Source: a virus
Virus record (IMG/VR): IMGVR_UViG_3300032086_003078
Span: 1 to 64,000 of that record
DNA length: 64,000 nt
Strand: one strand, 5' to 3'
Position numbers and translations under genes: made by a program. The notes under the pieces were generated by a model that saw nothing but the letters and a program-made list of their open reading frames with translations, made no database searches and had not been told where the DNA came from. Positions 717 through 54,724 of this stretch are shown here, in pieces (the stretch's first letter is position 1; each line of letters opens with the position of its first letter).

Positions 717-898
717 AAATCACAATGAATGAATTAAGAAAAGTGGTCCGCCAAGTAGTGGAGCAAAAGAAAAAAGAAAAGGGCTGGCTTGACATGTTTG
801 TCGATGCCATTACTACAGCAGCACCCCTCGGGCAAGTTGACTTGCTAAAGAGGGGGATGGATTCTATTGAAAAACCCAAGGCTAAAAAGAAAAAATGA
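713..898 (+). CDS. Small basic leader-type protein, 61 aa
   Basis: ATG at 713 overlaps the preceding stop (ATGA), and this start gives an N-terminus (MKITMNELRKVVRQVVEQ) of the same kind as the MKITKSQLRQIIKEE leaders further on. The site after the helix would be V-V-E rather than the usual I/L-x-E, so processing is less certain. The remainder (about 40 residues) contains a short hydrophobic helix (WLDMFVDAITTAAPLG) and a Lys-rich tail like that of the upstream protein. No domain is recognised. It sits in a run of overlapping leader-tagged genes and is probably co-translated with them. Confidence 0.6.
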   Translation: MKITMNELRKVVRQVVEQKKKEKGWLDMFVDAITTAAPLGQVDLLKRGMDSIEKPKAKKKK

Positions 899-1383
899 AA
901 AAACTCCTAACAGAGTGGCGGAAGTATATCAAAGAGGTTGAGAAGATTGCTGATATAGCAACCGACCAAAGCGAAATACAAAAGAGCCTAGATTACTTTT
1001 ATAAAGAACATGCTCCCAGCAAAGCCAAGCGACAAGACCTTGGTGATTTTAAGGGACACCAAATAGCACTCTTTACAGGTGGTGAGTTCGGTAAAGACGA
1101 ACTAATGTTTGTGGTTGATAAAGACGACAGACCTATTGCCTATGTTGCGACCAATCCACACGAAGATGCTTATGCTATTGGGAATGTCCGCAAAGTCAAG
1201 GGTGGAGGCTTTTATATCACCGACCTTTACAACTTCCTAGTTGATAGGTATGGAACTCTGTATAGCGACTCCAAGCAGACAACTGCTGGCGAGAGCATTT
1301 GGAAGAGGCTACAACAAGACCCAGCCCTCAAAGTTGAGGAACCAAGCAAAGAGACAGGCAACCGCTGGCGAGCAACAAAATGA
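895..1383 (+). CDS. Leader-tagged protein of unknown domain, 162 aa
   Basis: ATG at 895 overlaps the previous stop. The protein begins with the class II leader MKKLLTEWRKYIKEV, which contains an I-K-E site. The body has alternating strands and helices, with ELMFVVDKDDRPIAYVAT, a glycine-rich turn (VKGGGFYITDLY) and TLYSDSKQTTAGESIWKRL. The last segment recalls GNAT-fold acetyltransferases, but I see no clear acetyl-CoA loop, so function is open. The first 30 or so bases are almost identical to those of the genes at 1380 and 1894 while the bodies are unrelated, which shows that the leader is a separate module. Stop overlaps the next start. Confidence 0.7.
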   Translation: MKKLLTEWRKYIKEVEKIADIATDQSEIQKSLDYFYKEHAPSKAKRQDLGDFKGHQIALFTGGEFGKDELMFVVDKDDRPIAYVATNPHEDAYAIGNVRKVKGGGFYITDLYNFLVDRYGTLYSDSKQTTAGESIWKRLQQDPALKVEEPSKETGNRWRATK

Positions 1384-1889
1384 AAAAACTCCTAACAGAA
1401 TGGCGGAAGTTTTTGAATGAATCAAGTATCTTCGATAAGAAGTTGATTTATCGTGGGATGACTATTGATACAGGAAATGCTGCCTTGGCTTCCCAAATAA
1501 GAAAGTTAGCCCGAGGACAAAAGGCAACAATCAGCGAAAAAGAAGCGGGAGATATAATCATTTCCAGCCTCAAGTCGGGCAATGTCGGCGAATCGTGGAC
1601 AACAAATATTGATGTTGCTTCCAATTTCGCAGATGTCTGGGATGCGAAGAATAGAGGTCCAAAACTCCATGTAATATTTACAGCCGCTGTCCCAAAAGAT
1701 TTTGGCTATGACCCTCAATCTGCGGAAGAAGAGCCCGATATGTTTTCAGACGAAAGCGAAGTAAGAATACCTAAAGGCGAAGAGATTGAGATTACCTCGG
1801 CTTCGGTGTTTATTGCTGATAAGAAGCCAAGCAAAAACTGGACGAAATTTAAGAAGGTCGCTCATAAGCCGGGTATTGTGAGGGCATAA
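1380..1889 (+). CDS. Leader-tagged ADP-ribosyltransferase-like protein, 169 aa
   Basis: The protein starts with MKKLLTEWRKFLNES (L-N-E site after the leader helix). The body has the three elements of an R-S-E type ADP-ribosyltransferase: Arg25 in LIYRGM, the S-x-T strand at Ser72-Thr74 (ESWTTN), and a Glu-x-Glu pair at 125-127 (DESEVRIP). About 150 residues is the size of a compact ART domain. By analogy with T4 Alt, which is packed in the head and injected to modify host RNA polymerase, this would be an ejected NAD-dependent modifier of a host protein; the target cannot be read from sequence. It overlaps its upstream neighbour by ATGA and is followed by another tagged gene 4 bases on. Confidence 0.65.
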   Translation: MKKLLTEWRKFLNESSIFDKKLIYRGMTIDTGNAALASQIRKLARGQKATISEKEAGDIIISSLKSGNVGESWTTNIDVASNFADVWDAKNRGPKLHVIFTAAVPKDFGYDPQSAEEEPDMFSDESEVRIPKGEEIEITSASVFIADKKPSKNWTKFKKVAHKPGIVRA

Positions 1890-1893
1890 ATAA

Positions 1894-2358
1894 ATGAAAA
1901 AACTCCTAATAGAGTGGCGGAAGTTTTTGAAAGAAGAATCTTACATCACCCCTGGGCAAGAGTATGTGGGGCTGATTTTAGATGATGATGCTGTTAAACT
2001 TTTACAATCAAAGATGCCTGAAGTTCCCCAAGGCTGGACCCCAAGGATGCATCATATGACTGTTAAGTTTGGGAGAGAAGGGGTTCCAAATCGCTACAAA
2101 GGTCGCAACAAAGTAAAGGTTGTGGGACTAGCCCAGGACGATAAAGTGTGGGCAGCCAGAGTTGAGACCGATGTTCCTACTCAAAACGACATTCCTCACA
2201 TTACAATTGCTACAGCACCTGGAGTAAGGCCAAATCAATCTAATGATTTTTCTATGGAAGATTACAAACCTATTCCTCCTTTTGAGTTGGAGGGAGAAGT
2301 AAAAGAAAATATACAGACCAACTTCAAAAAAGAAGACCCAAGATTGAGCCATAAATAA
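1894..2358 (+). CDS. Leader-tagged 2H phosphoesterase-like protein, 154 aa
   Basis: After the leader MKKLLIEWRKFLKEE (L-K-E site) comes a domain with two H-x-T motifs about 48 residues apart: His54-Met-Thr56 (RMHHMTVKF) and His102-Ile-Thr104 (IPHITIAT). This pair is the catalytic signature of 2H phosphoesterases (LigT, CPDases, tRNA-ligase CPD domains). Members open 2',3'-cyclic phosphates or cleave 2'-5' or 3'-5' linkages; the phage anti-CBASS protein Acb1 (T4 57B) is also of this superfamily. With the leader, the simplest reading is an enzyme carried in the capsid and delivered at infection. Substrate is unknown: cyclic nucleotide signal or damaged RNA are both possible. Stop is followed by a short A/T-rich gap. 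Confidence 0.72.
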   Translation: MKKLLIEWRKFLKEESYITPGQEYVGLILDDDAVKLLQSKMPEVPQGWTPRMHHMTVKFGREGVPNRYKGRNKVKVVGLAQDDKVWAARVETDVPTQNDIPHITIATAPGVRPNQSNDFSMEDYKPIPPFELEGEVKENIQTNFKKEDPRLSHK

Positions 2359-2384: not shown

Positions 2385-2876
2385 ATGGATAGAGAAAGGG
2401 AAGCCTGGAAAAATATTAAGGATAATGCTACAAGCGATTATCACTATGCCGAGGTGTTTGATGCTACACCAACAACCAAGCCAAACTACATTTCAGCAAC
2501 CTTATGGACTACACTAGTTGCCGTTCTTGTGTGTTCGGTGTTCGCAGGTTTCCTGCTCTATCTTTACAATGAGAGCAATATAGAAGAGACCCTCTCAATG
2601 GCCGTCAGCCGTGCGATTATCTCTTTGGAGCAAACCATAGAACTCCAAAGCAAAGAGATTACGAAACTGAAGGCAGAGAACAAGAAGATACACGATTACC
2701 TACAACTTTGGACCCCGCTAGATTTACAACGACTTCAGCGGAAACATAAAAATAAAACACCAACAGAGGACGACCTACTAGACCTTGGTCCTGAAATCAT
2801 TATCAATGGTCGAGCATTACCTCCTCTCAGAAGACTTAACTTGGAGGACGGATTATGCTTACCTTCCTTGGAATAA
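2385..2876 (+). CDS. Single-span membrane protein with coiled coil, 163 aa
   Basis: A cytoplasmic N-terminus of about 40 residues is followed by one strong membrane segment (about residues 44-62, LWTTLVAVLVCSVFAGFLLYL) and then a coiled-coil helix (SLEQTIELQSKEITKLKAENKKIHDYL). The C-terminal 60 residues are polar. No Shine-Dalgarno site is visible before the ATG at 2385, and the true start may be further in. It overlaps the M50 protease gene by 22 bases, so a functional link (substrate, adaptor or anchor) is worth considering. A membrane anchor plus coiled coil is also seen in inner-membrane spanins, but nothing else supports that. Confidence 0.55.
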   Translation: MDREREAWKNIKDNATSDYHYAEVFDATPTTKPNYISATLWTTLVAVLVCSVFAGFLLYLYNESNIEETLSMAVSRAIISLEQTIELQSKEITKLKAENKKIHDYLQLWTPLDLQRLQRKHKNKTPTEDDLLDLGPEIIINGRALPPLRRLNLEDGLCLPSLE

Positions 2877-3658
2877 TTGTTTTAGTAATTTTTGTCCACG
2901 AATTGGGACATTATCTTGCTGCCCGAGCAATGGGTGTCGCAGTTGATAGTTTTTCAATTGGCTTCGGTAAAGTGCTCCTTAAAAAGAAGATGTGGGGAAC
3001 TGAATGGCGATTGTCGCTCCTACCTTTTGGCGGCTATATTATGCCCCGTGGCGAGCAGGATTATTACAACAAAGATGACGACCCAGAATCATTTTGGGCT
3101 GTTGCTCCTTGGCGACGAGGTGTAATCGCTGTAATGGGTCCAGTATTCAACTTGTTGCTTCCCTGGCCTCTATACTTTATGTTCCTTGTGGGACAGCCGT
3201 TCCCCGATGTTGTTGTGCCTGATGGTGCCGAACCAGCAAGGATTGGAGTTATGGATGCGGCTTACTACTCACACAAGATTTCCACCAACTTCTACAAGAA
3301 GATTTGGACTGCCGTCAATACACCAAGAGAACAGCCAATGTCTATCAAAGATGTCGGCGGTCCTGTAGCAGTCTATGAATTCACGGAAAATGCAAAAAAA
3401 AGAAGTCAAGAAACTGGAGACTGGGGGTTCCTTGTAGATTGGATTGTGTTCTTCTCAATTAACCTCGGTGTAATCAACCTATTACCGATCCCAGTATTAG
3501 ACGGCGGACATATAGCCATGGCTGGTTATGAGACTGTAACAAGGAGAAGATTATCAATACTTGCTCGTCGAAGACTAAACTATGTTGGTCTATATCTAGT
3601 AGGTGCTATATTTTTGCTAGCTATACTTTCAGATGCCTCCAGACTTTTTGGAATTTAG
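2855..3658 (+). CDS. Site-2 protease, M50 family (RseP-like, short form)
   Basis: The zinc-binding HELGH motif lies at residues 15-19 in the first membrane helix, and the second family motif (NLLPIPVLDGGH) lies near residues 205-218, giving the HExxH...LDG pair of intramembrane metalloproteases. It is 267 residues, against about 450 for RseP, and the periplasmic PDZ region is reduced to a short remnant around PDVVVPDGAEPA. The start is supported by GGAGGA 7 bases upstream. Host site-2 proteases release membrane-held sigma factors, so a phage version could trigger or mute an envelope stress response, or process the membrane protein encoded just upstream. The family call is firm, the role is inference. 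Confidence 0.88.
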   Translation: MLTFLGIIVLVIFVHELGHYLAARAMGVAVDSFSIGFGKVLLKKKMWGTEWRLSLLPFGGYIMPRGEQDYYNKDDDPESFWAVAPWRRGVIAVMGPVFNLLLPWPLYFMFLVGQPFPDVVVPDGAEPARIGVMDAAYYSHKISTNFYKKIWTAVNTPREQPMSIKDVGGPVAVYEFTENAKKRSQETGDWGFLVDWIVFFSINLGVINLLPIPVLDGGHIAMAGYETVTRRRLSILARRRLNYVGLYLVGAIFLLAILSDASRLFGI

Positions 3659-3691: not shown

Positions 3692-4000
3692 ATGAAAATC
3701 ACAAAATCACAACTTCGTCAAATCATTAAAGAAGAAATTCAAAATGAATATAATACAATGAAGGTGAGTTCTGGTAAAAGACCAGTACAGCGACAAGCGT
3801 CAAGCAAGACACCACTAGAGAGAGCAGGTCGAGGCAAATACTTCGCTGCTGTCGCCGCTTTTAAAAGGTTCATGGAAGAAAACCCAGATGCTGACAGAGA
3901 CATGCTTGGTAATGAATTAGTGAATAATCCACCAGGCGGCAGTTTGCAGGGGTATGAAGAAAGAGTCACACAAATGCTAAGGAACCTCGCTGCGAGATAA
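3692..4000 (+). CDS. Leader-tagged small protein, 102 aa
   Basis: It opens with the canonical class I leader MKITKSQLRQIIKEE, an amphipathic helix ending in an I-K-E site. The body is basic and Ser/Arg-rich in its first half (KRPVQRQASSKTPLERAGRGKYFAAVAAF) followed by an acidic helix and a predicted helix at the end. No known domain is recognised. A strong ribosome binding site (AGGGGG) precedes the ATG. It heads a run of four leader-tagged genes (3692, 4003, 4341, 4687) directly downstream of a candidate late element, which fits production together with capsid proteins. Confidence 0.7.
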   Translation: MKITKSQLRQIIKEEIQNEYNTMKVSSGKRPVQRQASSKTPLERAGRGKYFAAVAAFKRFMEENPDADRDMLGNELVNNPPGGSLQGYEERVTQMLRNLAAR

Positions 4001-4002
4001 AA

Positions 4003-4344
4003 ATGAAGATCACAAAATCACAACTACGACAAATTATCAAAGAAGAAATGGAAGCCATGATGGGCGACGTCCAGGTCGGCGATGAAGTAGATGTCATCGG
4101 CGGTGTTATGGTCGGAGCAGTCGGAGAGATAGTAGCAATGGGTTCAGAAGACGGCAAGCAGATTGTCGTTCTTAATCTACTCCGCCCAGCCGCTGACGAA
4201 AATTACAAAGATCTTGGACCCCAAGTCATAATTCAGCCTGACTTTATTGAAAAGCGAACTGATCTTTTTGCTAAGAGAATGGGGCGCAAAGCAGAGAACC
4301 CTGGACGTGGACCAATGAAATACTACGGAGTCAAAGACGTATGA
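4003..4344 (+). CDS. Leader-tagged SH3-like (KOW/GDEV) protein, 113 aa
   Basis: Leader MKITKSQLRQIIKEE is followed directly by a small beta-barrel type domain: DVQVGDEVDVIGGVMVGAVGEIVAM and IVVLNLLRP, with the G-D-x-V and turn spacing of KOW/SH3-like proteins. This same barrel type occurs without a leader in about eleven other small proteins of the window (MKxGDLV family), so this gene looks like a leader joined to a member of that family. The tail is Arg/Gly-rich. Start follows the previous stop by 2 bases, and the stop overlaps the next ATG. Confidence 0.7.
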   Translation: MKITKSQLRQIIKEEMEAMMGDVQVGDEVDVIGGVMVGAVGEIVAMGSEDGKQIVVLNLLRPAADENYKDLGPQVIIQPDFIEKRTDLFAKRMGRKAENPGRGPMKYYGVKDV

Positions 4345-4685
4345 AAATCACAAAAACACAACTACGACAAATTATCAAAGAAGAGCTTCTTAAGGAAGCT
4401 GAATTTACAATTCCTGACGAGCAAGGTCTAGAGAAAGAATACAATAAGATTAGAAGAGTATTCAAGATAGCAAAATCTGGGAAATTCAATAAAGACTTGA
4501 CCGATCAGGTTCAAAATGCGGCAGTTGAATATAAAAGAGAAATATATGAAATTGAAAAAGTTTCCGCCGAACTCGATAACTGGAAGAGGTTACTTGAGAA
4601 TACTCAAAAATTGTTCTATTTTATGAGTCGAGGCGGTGATCTACCAGCATTTCAAGAGATGTCTGACGATCCACGGGACGACTGA
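4341..4685 (+). CDS. Leader-tagged helical protein, 114 aa
   Basis: The leader MKITKTQLRQIIKEE is encoded by bases nearly identical to those at 4003. A second I/L-x-E type site may follow (LLKEA). The body is almost wholly helical and charged, with heptad-like spacing (YKREIYEIEKVSAELDNWKRLLENTQKLF), so a coiled-coil or helical bundle is likely. No family is recognised. It overlaps both neighbours (ATGA upstream; the downstream GTG lies 2 bases after the stop). Confidence 0.65.
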   Translation: MKITKTQLRQIIKEELLKEAEFTIPDEQGLEKEYNKIRRVFKIAKSGKFNKDLTDQVQNAAVEYKREIYEIEKVSAELDNWKRLLENTQKLFYFMSRGGDLPAFQEMSDDPRDD

Positions 4686-4686
4686 G

Positions 4687-5079
4687 GTGAAAATCACCAG
4701 AGATCAAATCCGTGAGATGGTGAAGAGGCAACTTGACGAACGTTGCCAGAAGGGCTACAAGACCCACGAAACTCGCAAAACCAAAAAGATGTTCGGCAGA
4801 ACATACAGAAACTGCGTTAAGGCAGAATCTGAGGAGCCTGTTGAGGACGAGACACTAGAAGAACGTGCCGCCATCCCTATGGAAGATATTATGCGTGCGG
4901 AAGACATTATCAAAAAGCACCTAGAAGAAATGTTTGATGAGATCGGCAGAGATGGTCTGCCTGATAATTTCTCAACAGATATTCTTGTAGAGCCAATCGT
5001 GAAGAAGTATATCAGCGGACGCCGTGCTGACAGAAAACCAAGATTCAACAAAATAACTGGTCGAATGACCCGTCGTTAA
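4687..5079 (+). CDS. Leader-tagged protein with a CxxGY...NC motif, 130 aa
   Basis: I place the start at GTG 4687, because it gives the leader MKITRDQIREMVKRQLDE and lies right after the upstream TGA; the longer frame from 4636 runs into the previous gene. An L-D-E site ends the leader. Next comes a Cys pair in the pattern RCQKGYKTHET...MFGRTYRNCVKAE, a motif I have seen in structural or packaged proteins of aquatic phages. The rest is acidic helix and then a basic tail (GRRADRKPRFNK). Function unknown. This is the last leader-tagged gene before the Mre11-Rad50 gene. Confidence 0.65.
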   Translation: MKITRDQIREMVKRQLDERCQKGYKTHETRKTKKMFGRTYRNCVKAESEEPVEDETLEERAAIPMEDIMRAEDIIKKHLEEMFDEIGRDGLPDNFSTDILVEPIVKKYISGRRADRKPRFNKITGRMTRR

Positions 5080-16391: not shown

Positions 16392-18269
16392 ATGGCTGAT
16401 AATAACAACAACAATGCAAATAATCCAAGAAACAATCAGTCTCCTTTATTTAAGAGACTCACAAGGTTGTTTAGTGGTCCAATTGTAAATTATGACCGAC
16501 CATCTGTCATCAGAGGAACACGCAGAGACGTCAAGAAGTATACTTTTACTTCCTCAACAGGCAGAGAGTTTAAAAAGAAAGAGTATCATAACCCTTTTAG
16601 TGGTCTGAGTAATAAAGTCCTATATCAGAGAAACAAGCAAGTAAGATATACAGACTTCGAACAGATGGAGTATATGCCAGAGATTGCTTCTGCTATTGAT
16701 ATTTATGCTGACGAGATAACAACCTCAACTGCGTTTAATCCACTAGTAAACATTGATTGTCAAAATAGGGAAATAAAAGACATAGTAAGCACCTTGCTTT
16801 ATAATGTACTAAATGTTGAGTCAAACTTATTTGGCTGGTCTAGAAGCATGTGTAAATACGGTGACTATTATTTATATCTTGACATCGATGATAAGATGGG
16901 TATCACAAATGCGATACCGCTTCCAGTCCGTGAAATAGAAAGGATCGAAGGAACAGATCCAACTAATCCAAACTATATCCAATATTTTTGGCAAGGAGCC
17001 GAAGGGAATAAAGGCGTAACTTTTGAGAACTGGCAAATTTCACACTTCCGTGTTCTAGGAAATGATAAGTATGTTCCCTACGGAACCTCAGTCCTGGAAC
17101 CATCACGACGCATTTGGCGACAGCTTACACTTCTAGAAGATGCGATGATGGCTTATCGTATCGTCCGATCGCCCGAGCGCCGAGTATTCTACATTGATGT
17201 CGGCAATATTGCAGCGGAAGACGTAGAACAATATATCGAACAAGTCAAGACCCAGATGAAAAGAAACCAGGTTGTAGACGAAGATTCTGGTCGTGTGGAT
17301 TTACGTTACAATGCGATGAGTGTTGATGAAGATTATTATATACCAGTTCGTGGTGCTAGTAATAATACTAGGATTGAGACTTTAGCTGGCGGTCAGTTCA
17401 CTGGGGACATTGATGATGTTAATTACCTTCGTGATAAACTGTTTTCAGCACTAAAGGTACCAAAAGCTTATTTGGCACAGTCTGACGCCCAGGAAGACAA
17501 AACAACATTGTCACAAAAAGACATTCGTTTTGCTAGAACAATACAAAGATTACAAAGAGTCGTAGTCGCTGAATTAGAGAAGATTGCTATTATTCATCTT
17601 TATACACTAGGCTACAGGGATTCTGATTTGCTCTCGTTCAAGTTGTCACTTAACAATCCATCAAAAATAGCTGAACTACAAGAGCTAGAGCATATGAGAC
17701 TTAAGTTTGATGTCGCAGGGTCTGCGACTGAAGGATACTTCTCTAAGCAGTGGGTATACCGAAACATCTTCAAGGCATCAGAAGAGGAAATCGAAAGAAT
17801 ACAAGTCGAGCAGTTTTCAGATGCTTTACACGCCGCCGCTTTGGAGCAGACAGCTACACCGCCAGAAGAAGGCGGCGGAGGTGATTTAGGTGGCGACCTT
17901 GGAGGCGATGATTTAGGTGGCGACCTTGGCGACGAAGAAGTTGGAGAAGAACCAGCAGATGAAGGACCACTTTTGGCTGAGCCTGAGATAGAGCCAGGTC
18001 AAAGAAATGACAATGGTTACATGAGAGTTAAGCGCCCAAAATGGAAAGAAGGAGCCTTTAGAAGAAGTGCCCTAGCAGCTTCTGGAACTAATTTAGCATC
18101 ATCGTCACATAGAAACCTATTTAAAGGGTGGAGCGGTCAGATGTCTCCATTATCTAGAGGAATAGTTGGCGAAGGAACAAACCCAGAAGAACAAATGTTG
18201 TTTGACACTGAAAACAGCATCAAGAAACTTATAGAGCAATTGGAAACTAAAAATGAAGGTCAAGCATAA
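16392..18269 (+). CDS. Portal protein (gp20-like)
   Basis: 625 residues, right after TerL as in most tailed phages. Features include the conserved early region (MEYMPEIASAIDIYADE), WSRSMCKYGDYYLYLDID, the crown/stem region (RIVRSPERRVFYIDVGN) and an acidic Gly/Asp repeat tail (GGDLGGDLGGDDLGGDLG, about 497-515). It forms the dodecameric ring through which DNA passes. The repeat gives a short internal DNA repeat. The end overlaps the next gene by 17 bases. Confidence 0.9.
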   Translation: MADNNNNNANNPRNNQSPLFKRLTRLFSGPIVNYDRPSVIRGTRRDVKKYTFTSSTGREFKKKEYHNPFSGLSNKVLYQRNKQVRYTDFEQMEYMPEIASAIDIYADEITTSTAFNPLVNIDCQNREIKDIVSTLLYNVLNVESNLFGWSRSMCKYGDYYLYLDIDDKMGITNAIPLPVREIERIEGTDPTNPNYIQYFWQGAEGNKGVTFENWQISHFRVLGNDKYVPYGTSVLEPSRRIWRQLTLLEDAMMAYRIVRSPERRVFYIDVGNIAAEDVEQYIEQVKTQMKRNQVVDEDSGRVDLRYNAMSVDEDYYIPVRGASNNTRIETLAGGQFTGDIDDVNYLRDKLFSALKVPKAYLAQSDAQEDKTTLSQKDIRFARTIQRLQRVVVAELEKIAIIHLYTLGYRDSDLLSFKLSLNNPSKIAELQELEHMRLKFDVAGSATEGYFSKQWVYRNIFKASEEEIERIQVEQFSDALHAAALEQTATPPEEGGGGDLGGDLGGDDLGGDLGDEEVGEEPADEGPLLAEPEIEPGQRNDNGYMRVKRPKWKEGAFRRSALAASGTNLASSSHRNLFKGWSGQMSPLSRGIVGEGTNPEEQMLFDTENSIKKLIEQLETKNEGQA

Positions 18270-20002: not shown

Positions 20003-20596
20003 ATGACTAAGAAATACGTACTACAAGAGTTTATGAACCTAGATTACAGCGACGATCTTCTCACAGAAGAAGAGCGTGAAGGTAATCGCCAAGGGATACA
20101 CCTTATTGTAGCAGGGAAGATACAGGCTGCCGGCAAAAAGAACGGCAACGGGCGTATTTACCCCCGACCAATCCTCGAAAGAGAGATGAAGAACTACGAA
20201 AAGCTTGTTCGTGAGGGTCGTGCTATTGGTGAACTAGACCACCCAGACAGTTCAGTCGTAGAATTGAAGAATGCTAGCCATCTAATCACACAAGTGTGGT
20301 GGGAAGGTGACGATGTCATGGGCAAAATGAAGATTTTGGATACTCCAGCGGGTCAGATCGCCAAACAACTAGTAGAAGGTGGCGTTCAGTTAGGTATTTC
20401 AAGTCGTGGTCTTGGCTCAACTCGCCAACAAGGCGGAGTTACCATGGTTGAAGACGATTTCCAACTACTTTGCTTCGACTTGGTATCAGAACCAAGCACA
20501 ACAGGTGCCTTTTTGGTTGCTGAAAGTCAAGTTAAGACACACTTAACCAAGGCTGACCGAATCAATCGTGCCTTGAACGACATTTTGGGCGACTAA
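20003..20596 (+). CDS. Prohead maturation protease (gp21-like)
   Basis: 197 residues. The catalytic His lies in IGELDHP (His80) and the Ser in LGISSRGLGS (Ser133 or 134), the S77-type signature of T4 gp21. T4 gp21 cuts after (I/L)-x-E and matures capsid, scaffold and internal proteins. Such a site occurs in its own N-terminus (LLTE, residues 19-22), in the capsid protein (LLKE, 55-58) and at the end of the leader helices. It is thus the presumed processing enzyme of the leader-tagged set. Ribosome binding site AAAGGAG is well placed. Confidence 0.9.
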   Translation: MTKKYVLQEFMNLDYSDDLLTEEEREGNRQGIHLIVAGKIQAAGKKNGNGRIYPRPILEREMKNYEKLVREGRAIGELDHPDSSVVELKNASHLITQVWWEGDDVMGKMKILDTPAGQIAKQLVEGGVQLGISSRGLGSTRQQGGVTMVEDDFQLLCFDLVSEPSTTGAFLVAESQVKTHLTKADRINRALNDILGD

Positions 20597-21627: not shown

Positions 21628-22023
21628 ATGAAAAAATCGGAACTCAAAAATATTATTAAAGAATGTGTCCGTGAGGTAATCTTTGAAGAAGGTATGCTAT
21701 CAGGCATCATCTCAGAGGTTGTACGAGGCATGGGAACAACCTTGGTACAGGAAGCTAGAACAGCACCTGTCTCACAACCATCAAAAGCCTTTTCGGAGAG
21801 CAAAAAGCAAGTTCTTGATGCTATTGGTAAGAACTCCTACGAAGATGTGAAGAAGAAGTTCTCTAACCCAGAACTTTTTGAAGGTACCCGACCTATCGCT
21901 GAATCTAAGAGCGCTAAGGGCGGAGCACTATCTGGCGTAGCACCTAGTGACCCAGGTGTAGACATTTCAAATATTCCCGGCTTTGGAAGCTGGTCTGCTG
22001 TTGCGAGCGCAACAAGAAAGTAA
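21628..22023 (+). CDS. Leader-tagged head-module protein, 131 aa
   Basis: Opens MKKSELKNIIKECVREVIFEE, a leader helix with I-F-E and other I/L/V-x-E sites (ISEV, LVQEA, LFEG, PIAES) along the chain. Multiple sites suggest that the protease cuts it into peptides, as happens to T4 core proteins gp67 and gp68. The rest is Ser/Ala/Gly-rich and probably disordered. It links the leader family to the prohead core by position. Moderately confident as a core protein. Confidence 0.65.
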   Translation: MKKSELKNIIKECVREVIFEEGMLSGIISEVVRGMGTTLVQEARTAPVSQPSKAFSESKKQVLDAIGKNSYEDVKKKFSNPELFEGTRPIAESKSAKGGALSGVAPSDPGVDISNIPGFGSWSAVASATRK

Positions 22024-25427: not shown

Positions 25428-27179
25428 ATGTCTGTAATTAACACACTCACCGAAGGCATTAGACAACGCTCTCTTGCCAATGAAGGTGAAGCTCTTCTTG
25501 AGAAGTGGCAGAAGACTGGACTCCTCGAAGGACTTGACGACCACAAAGCTGGTTCGATGGCTCGCCTTCTTGAGAACCAAGCCGCTCAGCTTCTTAAGGA
25601 ACAATCTACAATGGCTGCCGGCGATGTCGAAGGTTTTGCCTCTGTTGCTTTCCCAATCGTTCGTCGTGTATTCGGCAACCTTATCGCACAAGACCTAGTC
25701 TCAGTGCAACCAATGTCTCTACCAAGTGGACTCATTTTCTTCCTTGACTTTGTGTTCTCTGTTGATGGTGGCATGGTTGATCCAACAGACGGCACCGACG
25801 GCTTCCGCCTAGGTCAGAGACAAGACACCTCTGTTTACGGTGGTGGCAAAGTTGGTTCTGGCATCATTGATGGCGTCGATCTAGGTGGCAACAACGGTCA
25901 GCTTTCTGCTTACAGCTTGAATAACGGCTACTCTAGTCCAACAGGCTCTCAGACAGGTGTCGTTGAAGTTCTCGCCTCTGGTACTTTCGGCGACGTAGCT
26001 TCTATTCACGACTGGGCCGACGTTCTTCACAGTGATCCAGTATTTACCTCTGGTACATCTGGTTACCTCGTTGGTAAAATTCCAACACCTTCTAGCCTTA
26101 ACAAGGATGACTTGGTAGCTGTTACCTTGTCTAGTTCTCTTGGTAACGCTGGTCTATTTGACGGCGGCGCTCGAAGCTGTTTCCAAGTACGTCGCTTGAC
26201 ACAGTTCTCTGGTACAGCCGAAGACCACCTACTAGTTGTTTTGGCTCAGCCAACAATAGCTACTGCTGATGACGCACACACAATTCTTAGTGCTGCTGCC
26301 GGTGAGGTTGGTTCTAGCACCTTCCCAATTGTTGATGGCTTCAACAACGGCGGCGCTATTGGTTCTATAGTTGGTGAGGCAACTTGGGGTCTTGAAGCCC
26401 AAGCCGGCATCCCAGAAATCGACATCAAGGTTGATTCTACTGCCGTAACAGCTATCACCAAGAAGCTTAAGGCTAAGTGGTCTCCAGAGCTAGCTCAAGA
26501 CTTGAATGCTTACCACAACCTCGACGCTGAAGTTGAGTTGACAAGCATCCTTTCTGAGCAAGTTGCTCTTGAAATCGACCAAGAAATCCTTGAAGATCTC
26601 GTCAAGGGTGCTACCGCTGGTACATTGTACTGGTCTCGCAGCCCAGGTAAGTTCCTCAACCGTGAAACAGGTCGTCGTCTTGTCGGCACCACATACCCTG
26701 ACTTCACAGGTACTGTCTCCGAATGGTACGAAACACTTCTTGAAACAGTCAACGAAGTAAGTGCTCGTATTCACCGTAAGACACTTCGTGGCGGCGCAAA
26801 CTTTGTTGTTTGCTCTCCAGAAATGGCTAACATTCTTGAATTCACAAGCGGCTTCCGTGCCAACGTCAACGTTGATGCTGACGGCTCTTGGGGTGCTATG
26901 AATGTCGGTTCTATTAGCCGTAAGATGGACATTATTGTCGATCCTTACTTTACCCGTAACTTGCTCCTTGTCGGTCGTAAGGGCTCTAGCTTCCTCGAAA
27001 GTGGATATGTTTACGCTCCTTACGTCCCACTACAAGTCACACCAACCATCTTTGGTACAGAAGATTTCGTGCCCCGCAAGGGCGTCATGACTCGCTATGC
27101 CAAGAAGATGGTGCGTCCTGACATGTACGGACTAGTTATTTGTCAAGATTTGGTCTCTAACGTCGATCATGCGTCGTAA
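25428..27179 (+). CDS. Major capsid protein (gp23-like)
   Basis: 583 residues, right after the scaffold with AAGGAG as ribosome binding site. The N-terminal arm (about residues 20-85) includes LLENQAAQLLKEQ: L-K-E at 56-58 is the likely cleavage point, as T4 gp23 loses its first 65 residues. Then an HK97-type order is likely (FPIVRRVFGNL, E-loop-rich region, C-terminal DPYFTRNLLLVGRKG). Codon use is strong and regular as expected for the most abundant protein. A truncated relative is at 9343. Confidence 0.9.
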   Translation: MSVINTLTEGIRQRSLANEGEALLEKWQKTGLLEGLDDHKAGSMARLLENQAAQLLKEQSTMAAGDVEGFASVAFPIVRRVFGNLIAQDLVSVQPMSLPSGLIFFLDFVFSVDGGMVDPTDGTDGFRLGQRQDTSVYGGGKVGSGIIDGVDLGGNNGQLSAYSLNNGYSSPTGSQTGVVEVLASGTFGDVASIHDWADVLHSDPVFTSGTSGYLVGKIPTPSSLNKDDLVAVTLSSSLGNAGLFDGGARSCFQVRRLTQFSGTAEDHLLVVLAQPTIATADDAHTILSAAAGEVGSSTFPIVDGFNNGGAIGSIVGEATWGLEAQAGIPEIDIKVDSTAVTAITKKLKAKWSPELAQDLNAYHNLDAEVELTSILSEQVALEIDQEILEDLVKGATAGTLYWSRSPGKFLNRETGRRLVGTTYPDFTGTVSEWYETLLETVNEVSARIHRKTLRGGANFVVCSPEMANILEFTSGFRANVNVDADGSWGAMNVGSISRKMDIIVDPYFTRNLLLVGRKGSSFLESGYVYAPYVPLQVTPTIFGTEDFVPRKGVMTRYAKKMVRPDMYGLVICQDLVSNVDHAS

Positions 27180-53516: not shown

Positions 53517-54215
53517 ATGAATATATTCAATCCATGGCGAAAGTTTTTGTTACAAGAATCAGGATTCAACAGAATCATGAATATTTTGCAAGGTAAAGTG
53601 ACATCAGTAGATACTGTCGGTTTCTTAACTGGCGAAAACCCCATGGCTCAAAAGATGTCATCTAAGGAGAATCGAGCCCTCAACAAGGAGTTGATGGCTT
53701 GGATGCGTGATCGTGGCTACGGTCCCATTCGCATTCGTGGTAAGTTTGGCAACAAAGAGCGCTCTATGATTATTCCAAACATTACTAGGGAAGATATGGT
53801 AGAGGCGGGCAAAACATTCAATCAAGAGTCTGTAATCTGGGGGAAGAGAACCGAAAAAGATAAGTTTATTTTCGAATATATTGAGGGCGACAAGACTATT
53901 CAGAAAAGAGATGTTGTTCTTTTTGATAAAGATGTTCAAGCAAGGGAAGATTACTACTCGCAAGAGAGACAATCAGCCGGGCGTAAATTTTATATTCCAT
54001 TTTTTGATGATGAGTATGAGATGGAAGAAGGTCAGGAATCAGAATATGATTTGCCTGAATTGACCGAGAGGCAAATCGCCAAACACAAAGAACTTATCCA
54101 GGAAATCAATCACCGCCTGAAACTCTCTTTAGACGGATTGAGAACAGAGAAGTCTCGCTGGCAGCAGCGGCAGATCGCTCGTCTAAGACTTCGGGAACTA
54201 AAGAAGAAACTATGA
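53517..54215 (+). CDS. Leader-tagged DUF3293-like protein, 232 aa
   Basis: ATG 53517 lies just after the GroES-like stop. Starts MNIFNPWRKFLLQES, a class II leader with an L-Q-E site. The domain shows GFLTGENPMAQKMSSKEN and TFNQESVIWG, the order of DUF3293 (xTxxNPxSxxLsxxEN... fgQxSvI). C-terminal half is charged and helical. Far from the first leader cluster, but overlapping another tagged gene. Confidence 0.65.
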   Translation: MNIFNPWRKFLLQESGFNRIMNILQGKVTSVDTVGFLTGENPMAQKMSSKENRALNKELMAWMRDRGYGPIRIRGKFGNKERSMIIPNITREDMVEAGKTFNQESVIWGKRTEKDKFIFEYIEGDKTIQKRDVVLFDKDVQAREDYYSQERQSAGRKFYIPFFDDEYEMEEGQESEYDLPELTERQIAKHKELIQEINHRLKLSLDGLRTEKSRWQQRQIARLRLRELKKKL

Positions 54216-54724
54216 AATCATTTGAACAAAGCTTTCGAGAGTTCCTAACAGAGGCTGAACTGGGACAATATGTGGATGGTGGTCAGGTCACCTTGTTCCA
54301 CTATACTAAGCACCCAGAGGATTCCTTGGTTTTGGACCCAAAATACTTTGCGGATCGTGCGACTCGTAGTGCCTTTAGTAGAAATGAGTACGAGATCAGC
54401 CAGGTCCCAAGAACTTTTTATTATGTAGATCCCAAGCAGAGGGAGACATTCTTCGGTGCAGGGGTCCCACTTTTTACCACAAAAGTCCCCGCTAGTAAAA
54501 TATATGATCTAAAGAATGACCCTGAAGGATACAAAGAAAAGAATAGACATCCAGTTTACGGCTTAAGGAAAGGCGAAGAATGGAATACACTATTAGAGGA
54601 TATCCGTGAGGATTACGACGGAATTTTTTATTCCACCAACAGGTTCGATGTGGTCGCTTGGTTTCAGCCCATCGAAGTTAACAAGGTTTCCCAAGAGGAG
54701 CAAGCTCGCCTAGAAAACGAGTAG
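54212..54724 (+). CDS. Leader-tagged protein of unknown enzyme type, 170 aa
   Basis: Starts MKSFEQSFREFLTEA, leader helix with an L-T-E site. The rest has VTLFHYTKHPEDSLVLDPKYF, PRTFYYVDPKQRE and IFYSTNRFDVVAWFQPIEV. The FHYT, Arg/Tyr and strand order recall compact toxin-type or ADP-ribosyltransferase-like folds, but I cannot assign it. ATGA overlap with 53517. Confidence 0.65.
   Translation: MKSFEQSFREFLTEAELGQYVDGGQVTLFHYTKHPEDSLVLDPKYFADRATRSAFSRNEYEISQVPRTFYYVDPKQRETFFGAGVPLFTTKVPASKIYDLKNDPEGYKEKNRHPVYGLRKGEEWNTLLEDIREDYDGIFYSTNRFDVVAWFQPIEVNKVSQEEQARLENE

What the first reader, a model, noticed from the sequence alone, without database searches (positions are those of the whole stretch)
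1894..2358. 2H phosphoesterase-like enzyme with a capsid-targeting-type leader
Two H-x-T motifs at 54-56 and 102-104 define the 2H fold. Phage 2H enzymes include Acb1, which degrades CBASS signal nucleotides. A version carried into the cell with the DNA would act before host signalling rises. Substrate is not known; RNA-end repair is an alternative.
Basis: partly seen in the sequence, partly recalled or inferred. Interest (0 to 1): 0.75.

Follow-up and report, generated by a model that had tools for sequence, protein, structure and literature searches.

The report
Capsid-tagged RNA-end enzyme in phage
A phage with a T4-type head carries a small enzyme predicted to open cyclic phosphates on broken RNA ends; it bears a portable tag, found on dozens of unrelated proteins in related phages, that most likely loads it into the virus head so it enters the cell with the DNA.

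Summary
ORF 1894-2358 encodes 154 aa with H54-M-T56 and H102-I-T104. It is a 2H phosphoesterase: it passes Pfam's cut-off for PF08302 (fungal tRNA-ligase cyclic phosphodiesterase), both motifs are kept in 24 of 24 family members, and a confident model matches CNPase, fungal Trl1 and viral RNA ligases better than Acb1. Opening of 2',3'-cyclic phosphates is therefore likelier than an Acb1 role.

The leader is the larger finding. MKKLLxEWRKFLKE is a portable tag: 27 unrelated body clusters carry it (leader identity 85%, body 6%). It ends in a T4-gp21-type site, and the record encodes gp21. Twelve metagenomic relatives of this 2H also carry a leader or an equivalent internal site. In one the gene sits in the head operon; in four a tagged HAD phosphatase is beside or fused to it; in one a tagged CCA-adding enzyme is two genes away. 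A close relative lacks the ART-like+2H cassette.

Best reading: a virion-delivered RNA-end-healing enzyme, one cargo of an expanded T4-like internal-protein system. Packaging, cleavage and substrate are inferred, not shown. Packaged phage 2H domains and phage 2H RNA repair had been proposed before.

The parts
1894..2358 (+). 2H phosphoesterase, Trl1-CPD/CNPase-like, 154 aa, with 14-residue leader
1894..1935 (+). leader MKKLLIEWRKFLKE, predicted capsid-targeting sequence; predicted gp21 cut after E14
2053..2061 (+). first catalytic motif H54-M-T56
   Evidence: invariant in relatives
2197..2205 (+). second catalytic motif H102-I-T104 (in N..PHITI....P..SN signature)
   Evidence: invariant in relatives
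1380..1889 (+). leader-tagged neighbour, ART-like by motif only (YRGM / SWTT / ESEV)
   Evidence: sequence; no Pfam hit; single-sequence model failed
895..1383 (+). leader-tagged neighbour, 162 aa; nearly identical gene in relative L074
3..716 (+). protein running off the window start; internal leader-like SILRNLIKE, then a body that carries leader A in L073
713..898 (+). second leader family (MKITMNELRKVVRQ)
3692..4000 (+). second leader family (MKITKSQLRQIIKEE)
4003..4344 (+). second leader family (MKITKSQLRQIIKEE)
4341..4685 (+). second leader family (MKITKTQLRQIIKEE)
4687..5079 (+). second leader family (MKITRDQIREMVKRQ)
20003..20596 (+). gp21-type prohead protease (PF03420), predicted to cut the leader
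   Evidence: E=5.6e-28
16392..18269 (+). gp20-type portal
   Evidence: E=4.5e-81
25428..27179 (+). gp23-type major capsid protein; N-terminal region holds a QLLKE|Q site like the leader end

Best explanation
The protein is a 2H phosphoesterase of the tRNA-ligase-CPD/CNPase type, made with a short N-terminal capsid-targeting leader. During head assembly the leader draws it into the prohead core, the gp21 protease cuts after LKE (residue 14), and the mature enzyme is packaged with the DNA and enters the next host at once. There it opens 2',3'-cyclic phosphates, most likely on RNA ends left by host anti-phage ribonucleases, as the first step of RNA-end healing or to remove the cyclic end as a signal. 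It is one exchangeable cargo in an array of leader-tagged effectors. Estimates: 2H fold 0.97; leader is a packaging tag cut by gp21 0.85; acts on 2',3'-cyclic phosphate of RNA or nucleotides 0.75; RNA end healing as the role 0.6. Fold is predicted from sequence and model; leader sharing and swapping are shown from sequence; packaging, cutting, substrate and role are inferred.
For: 2H: PF08302 above cut-off in this protein and in four phage relatives; weak profile alignment to Candida Trl1 KIN-CPD 6tzo/6u00 covers both HxT and the trailing ESN (E~0.9); fold matches CNPase and 6u05 at probability 1.0 and viral RNA-ligase-type proteins at E 2.4e-7 and 2.3e-6, ahead of Acb1 at 1.4e-3; HxT x2 in 24 of 24. 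Tag: 62 leader ORFs, 33 body clusters; in 27 clusters leader identity 0.85, body 0.06, E14 in 26 of 27. gp21 in the window record, in G001 and LR756511 and in the three longest further leader-2H records. Leader swaps at the cut: window LKE|ESYITPGQEY against L009 LSE|QPYETPGQEY; the 3-716 body against L073 LKE|EDYKGEH. L119: 2H gene in the head operon after the portal and two further head-operon genes. Cargo: ART-PolyVal in 4, GNAT, CCA-adding, ParB_N. Role: tagged HAD beside or fused to 2H in L009, L117, L126, L129; motif absent from 314 kb of leader loci without this 2H; tagged CCA-adding enzyme two genes before 2H in L010.
Against: No virion proteome: packaging and cleavage are not shown. 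The leader does not match T4's IPI leader in sequence. No RNA ligase (PF09414), KptA or CCA-adding enzyme was found in the 88-kb record and the HAD motif is not in the window, though the record is probably a fragment. Relatives without a leader exist (crAss, B23 and others), so packaging is not required for the enzyme's function. Fold scores are moderate (PDB E ~1e-3).
Confidence: 0.6

Rival explanations
1. Packaged anti-signalling enzyme: an Acb1-like 2H that degrades CBASS or other cyclic (oligo)nucleotide signals, delivered early.
For: Same superfamily and HxT/HxT tetrad; Acb1 models are matched by fold at E 1.4e-3 and a phage BCSR5 phosphodiesterase at rank 5 in PDB. Packaged 2H domains were proposed to act on signals (PMC9503650).
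Against: No significant sequence match to T4 Acb1 (34 residues around the first motif, pairwise E=0.048); Trl1/RNA-ligase matches rank above; P..SN after motif 2 is absent from T4 Acb1; tagged HAD and CCA-adding neighbours point to RNA ends.
Confidence: 0.17
2. Scavenger of 2',3'-cyclic mononucleotides or of ADP-ribose cyclic phosphate: the 2H opens the ring and the neighbouring HAD nucleotidase removes the phosphate.
For: CNPase is among the closest folds; one adjacent HAD passes the NT5C nucleotidase cut-off.
Against: The CCA-adding neighbour and RNA-ligase-type relatives favour RNA; HAD pairing is seen in only four loci and not in the window.
Confidence: 0.15
3. The leader is not a packaging tag but only a recombination handle, or a signal for another compartment; the enzyme acts after new synthesis.
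For: Leader DNA is conserved beyond its protein (identical codon given identical residue 0.71, body 0.37); arrays recombine.
Against: The leader ends at a gp21-type site, swaps occur at that site, gp21 is found with the head genes in the leader-bearing records, and cargo includes known kinds of injected enzyme.
Confidence: 0.1

Closest known systems
Fungal tRNA ligase Trl1, cyclic phosphodiesterase domain (PF08302)
   Same: Passes the Pfam cut-off; both HxT motifs; trailing SN motif; fold match to 6u05
   Different: Stand-alone 154 aa without ligase or kinase domains; carries a capsid-targeting-type leader; activity untested
T4 internal proteins IPI-III and Alt with capsid-targeting sequence
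   Same: Short N-terminal propeptide removed after a glutamate; gp21 protease and gp20/gp23 head; conserved tag on diverse cargo (PMC3012670, PMC5694885)
   Different: Different leader sequence; tandem arrays of tagged genes; enzyme cargo including 2H, HAD, CCA-adding, Nudix, kinase-like; leader-like sites also inside fused proteins
Jumbo-phage 2H phosphoesterases (Iyer et al. 2021, PMC7824862)
   Same: Predicted 2',3'-cyclic-phosphate specialists for RNA repair
   Different: No packaging tag was mentioned in the passages read
MuF/portal-fused 2H domains (PMC9503650)
   Same: 2H enzyme proposed to be packaged and injected
   Different: Delivered by fusion to a head protein, not by a short cleavable leader
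Acb1 anti-CBASS
   Same: 2H fold, HxT/HxT
   Different: No significant sequence match; weaker fold match; T4 Acb1 lacks P..SN

Membership tests
2H phosphoesterase superfamily | two H-x-[ST] motifs | tested here: met
   H54-M-T56 and H102-I-T104; 24 of 24 family members
2H phosphoesterase superfamily | 2H fold | tested here: met
   model core pLDDT ~95; CNPase, Trl1, VP3 PDE matches
2H phosphoesterase superfamily | both motifs face one cleft | not testable with these tools
   no coordinates available; motifs on strands 54-59 and 102-107
Trl1 CPD (PF08302) | score above Pfam gathering cut-off | tested here: met
   29.9 bits vs 23; local match to profile positions 157-216 of 250 only
Trl1 CPD (PF08302) | opens 2',3'-cyclic phosphate to 2'-phosphate | not testable with these tools
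   needs an enzyme assay
Trl1 tRNA ligase | ligase and kinase domains in the same chain | tested here: not met
   154 aa single domain
Acb1 anti-CBASS | sequence homology to T4 Acb1 | tested here: not met
   34-residue match, pairwise E=0.048
Acb1 anti-CBASS | nearest fold relative is Acb1 | tested here: not met
   an RNA ligase ranks first; named Acb1 proteins at ranks 11 and 13
Acb1 anti-CBASS | base-stacking residues and C-terminal lid | not tested
   no structural superposition possible
T4-type capsid-targeted internal protein | 10-20-residue N-terminal propeptide ending in hydrophobic-x-E | tested here: met
   position 12 hydrophobic in 27 of 27 clusters, E14 in 26 of 27
T4-type capsid-targeted internal protein | gp21-type protease in the same phage | tested here: met
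T4-type capsid-targeted internal protein | same tag on unrelated cargo | tested here: met
T4-type capsid-targeted internal protein | leader homologous to the T4 CTS | tested here: inconclusive
   T4 IPI MKTFKEFTSTTTPVSTITE differs; L012/LR756511 leaders look more T4-like by eye
T4-type capsid-targeted internal protein | present in virions, leader removed | not testable with these tools
   uncultured phage
phage RNA-repair set | RNA ligase, KptA or CCA-adding enzyme in the same genome | tested here: not met
   none in the 88-kb record, which is probably a fragment
phage RNA-repair set | phosphatase partner beside the 2H | tested here: inconclusive
   tagged HAD in four relatives, none in the window

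The most novel reading that the evidence does not exclude
These T4-headed phages keep an array of exchangeable cassettes, each a different effector enzyme behind the same short cleavable capsid tag, and load a ready-made RNA-end-healing kit (2H, HAD phosphatase, CCA-adding enzyme) into the virion, so that tRNA damage is repaired before any phage gene is expressed.
Probability: 0.4. Interest if true: 0.85.

Novelty: new variant of a known kind. Interest (0 to 1): 0.68.

Why it matters
T4 is known to inject a few tagged internal proteins. If the leader is a packaging tag, related phages carry much larger, recombining sets of injected enzymes, and the tag alone gives a sequence rule for listing them, including many of unknown function. 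A virion-delivered 2H enzyme would mean that RNA damage from host defences can be answered at the moment of entry. The tag is directly testable.

Tried and rejected
Scans with the single protein found no relative in the viral or genome collections; an alignment was needed. PHROGs, PADLOC and NCBIfam gave no useful hit for the 2H. The T4-type late promoter TATAAATA is not enriched (3 found, 2.4 expected), so late expression could not be argued that way. The ART reading of 1380-1889 stayed at motif level: no Pfam hit, related loci matched it mainly at the leader, and the single-sequence model failed (pLDDT 40.6). A second 2H-like tagged protein (L099, HVT/HIS) has motif support only. Acb1 membership was tested and not met.

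Full report
Observation. The ORF at 1894-2358 is real and its two motifs are H54-M-T56 and H102-I-T104. The window lies in an 88,413-base virus record with a T4-type head: terminase, gp20 portal and gp23 capsid protein, plus a TubZ-like protein and a bacterial-type DNA polymerase III, and a gp21-type prohead protease at 20003-20596.

What the protein is. Pfam PF08302, the cyclic phosphodiesterase domain of fungal tRNA ligase, is matched above its cut-off (E=5e-7), and so it is by phage relatives from LR756511, crAss phages and Synechococcus phage B23. The match covers only the later part of the profile. A profile of 12 relatives gives a weak match (E~0.9) to the Candida Trl1 kinase-CPD structures, aligned across both HxT motifs and the ESN that follows the second. 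The AlphaFold model has a core at pLDDT about 95 and a disordered first 21 residues. Its closest solved folds are CNPase and the fungal Trl1 structure; its closest viral models are an RNA ligase of a Marseillevirus and a protein of Cafeteria roenbergensis virus, with Acb1 proteins lower. T4 Acb1 shows no significant sequence similarity. In 24 family members both HxT motifs are present, and most keep P..SN after the second, which T4 Acb1 lacks (sequence).

The leader. The genes at 895 and 1380 open with the same leader, and five more nearby with a second kind, typified by MKITKxQLRQIIKEE. A search with the gene at 1380 returned 12 loci whose matches lie mainly at the leader. A DNA scan for the leader gave 29 stretches. 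Together with the 2H loci they hold 62 leader ORFs in 33 body clusters. In the 27 clusters with the MKxLLxEWR form, leader identity is 0.85 and body identity 0.06; position 12 is hydrophobic in all and position 14 is E in 26; the same codon is used for the same residue in 0.71 of leader comparisons and 0.37 of body comparisons. Bodies include four ART-PolyVal proteins, GNATs, a CCA-adding enzyme, a ParB_N protein and a DUF3990 protein; later loci add Nudix, kinase-like and RNase_T-type cargo.

Why a packaging tag. T4 internal proteins and Alt enter the prohead by a short N-terminal sequence that gp21 removes, cutting after a glutamate (PMC5694885; PMC3012670). Here the leader ends in hydrophobic-x-E, as do sites in this phage's gp23 N-terminal region (QLLKE|Q) and in a scaffold-like protein. 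Bodies change leader at that point: the 2H body follows LKE in the window and LSE inside a longer fusion protein in L009; the body at the window's left edge follows an internal IKE here and leader A in L073. gp21 occurs in the window record, in the L009 record and in LR756511, in the three longest of the further leader-2H records, and in seven of 14 other leader records; of the seven without it, six lack gp23 as well and one has gp23 at the contig start, so the head genes are simply not on those fragments. In L119 the tagged 2H gene follows the portal and the two genes that follow the portal in the window.

Relatives of the 2H. Tagged or internally tagged copies number 12 distinct ones beside the window's (L009, L010, L011, L012, L116, L117, L119, L120, L122, L123, L126, L129), plus LR756511. 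Leader type is clustered on the tree (6 label changes, shuffled mean 12.4). crAss, B23 and several others have no leader. In L009, L117, L126 and L129 a tagged HAD protein is fused or adjacent (in L117 with one small gene between); the HAD motif is absent from 314 kb of leader loci without this 2H. One HAD passes the NT5C cut-off; the others are below it or give no hit. In L010 a tagged CCA-adding enzyme lies two genes upstream.

Exchange. In L074, from a relative whose 895-type gene is 97.7% identical in DNA, window 1381-2352 (the ART-like and 2H genes) is missing and replaced by about 136 bases before the next shared region. The pair is therefore an accessory cassette.

Mechanism. Shown from sequence: family, leader sharing, leader swapping, protease in the record, cassette loss. 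Inferred: packaging, cutting, injection, substrate. I favour opening of 2',3'-cyclic phosphates on RNA. Prior work predicted this for jumbo-phage 2H enzymes (PMC7824862) and proposed packaged 2H domains through MuF or portal fusion (PMC9503650). The literature searches here found no description of leader-tagged arrays of this kind, in open-licence papers only.

Limits. The record is probably a fragment that begins inside the array, and lacks RNA ligase (PF09414), KptA and CCA-adding genes. The ART reading of the neighbour is motif-level. Leader copies are related to each other, so their counts are not independent events.

Noticed in passing
window 2855-3658: Membrane protein with FVHELGHYLAARAMG and PVLDGG, reading like an M50 site-2-type metalloprotease; its DNA is conserved beside the leader array in L064, L065 and L074.
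   Followed up: partly
L099 6119-6574 (-): A second, different 2H-like protein (HVT / HIS) with the same leader; suggests 2H enzymes were recruited to the tag more than once.
   Followed up: partly
L009 4513-6432; L129 3509-4438: Fused proteins with internal leader-like sites before the 2H domain (HAD-x-2H; alpha/beta-hydrolase-2H), possibly cut by the prohead protease.
   Followed up: partly
window 54212-54724: A 170-aa protein opening MKSFEQSFREFLTEAE, a third leader-like start far from the array; no Pfam hit.
   Followed up: partly
L013 5869-6864: Untagged 2H fused to a phosphoribosyltransferase-like domain.
   Followed up: no
window 21628-22023: Gene between gp21 and gp23 opening MKKSELKNIIKECVREVIFEE, like the second leader family.
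   Followed up: no
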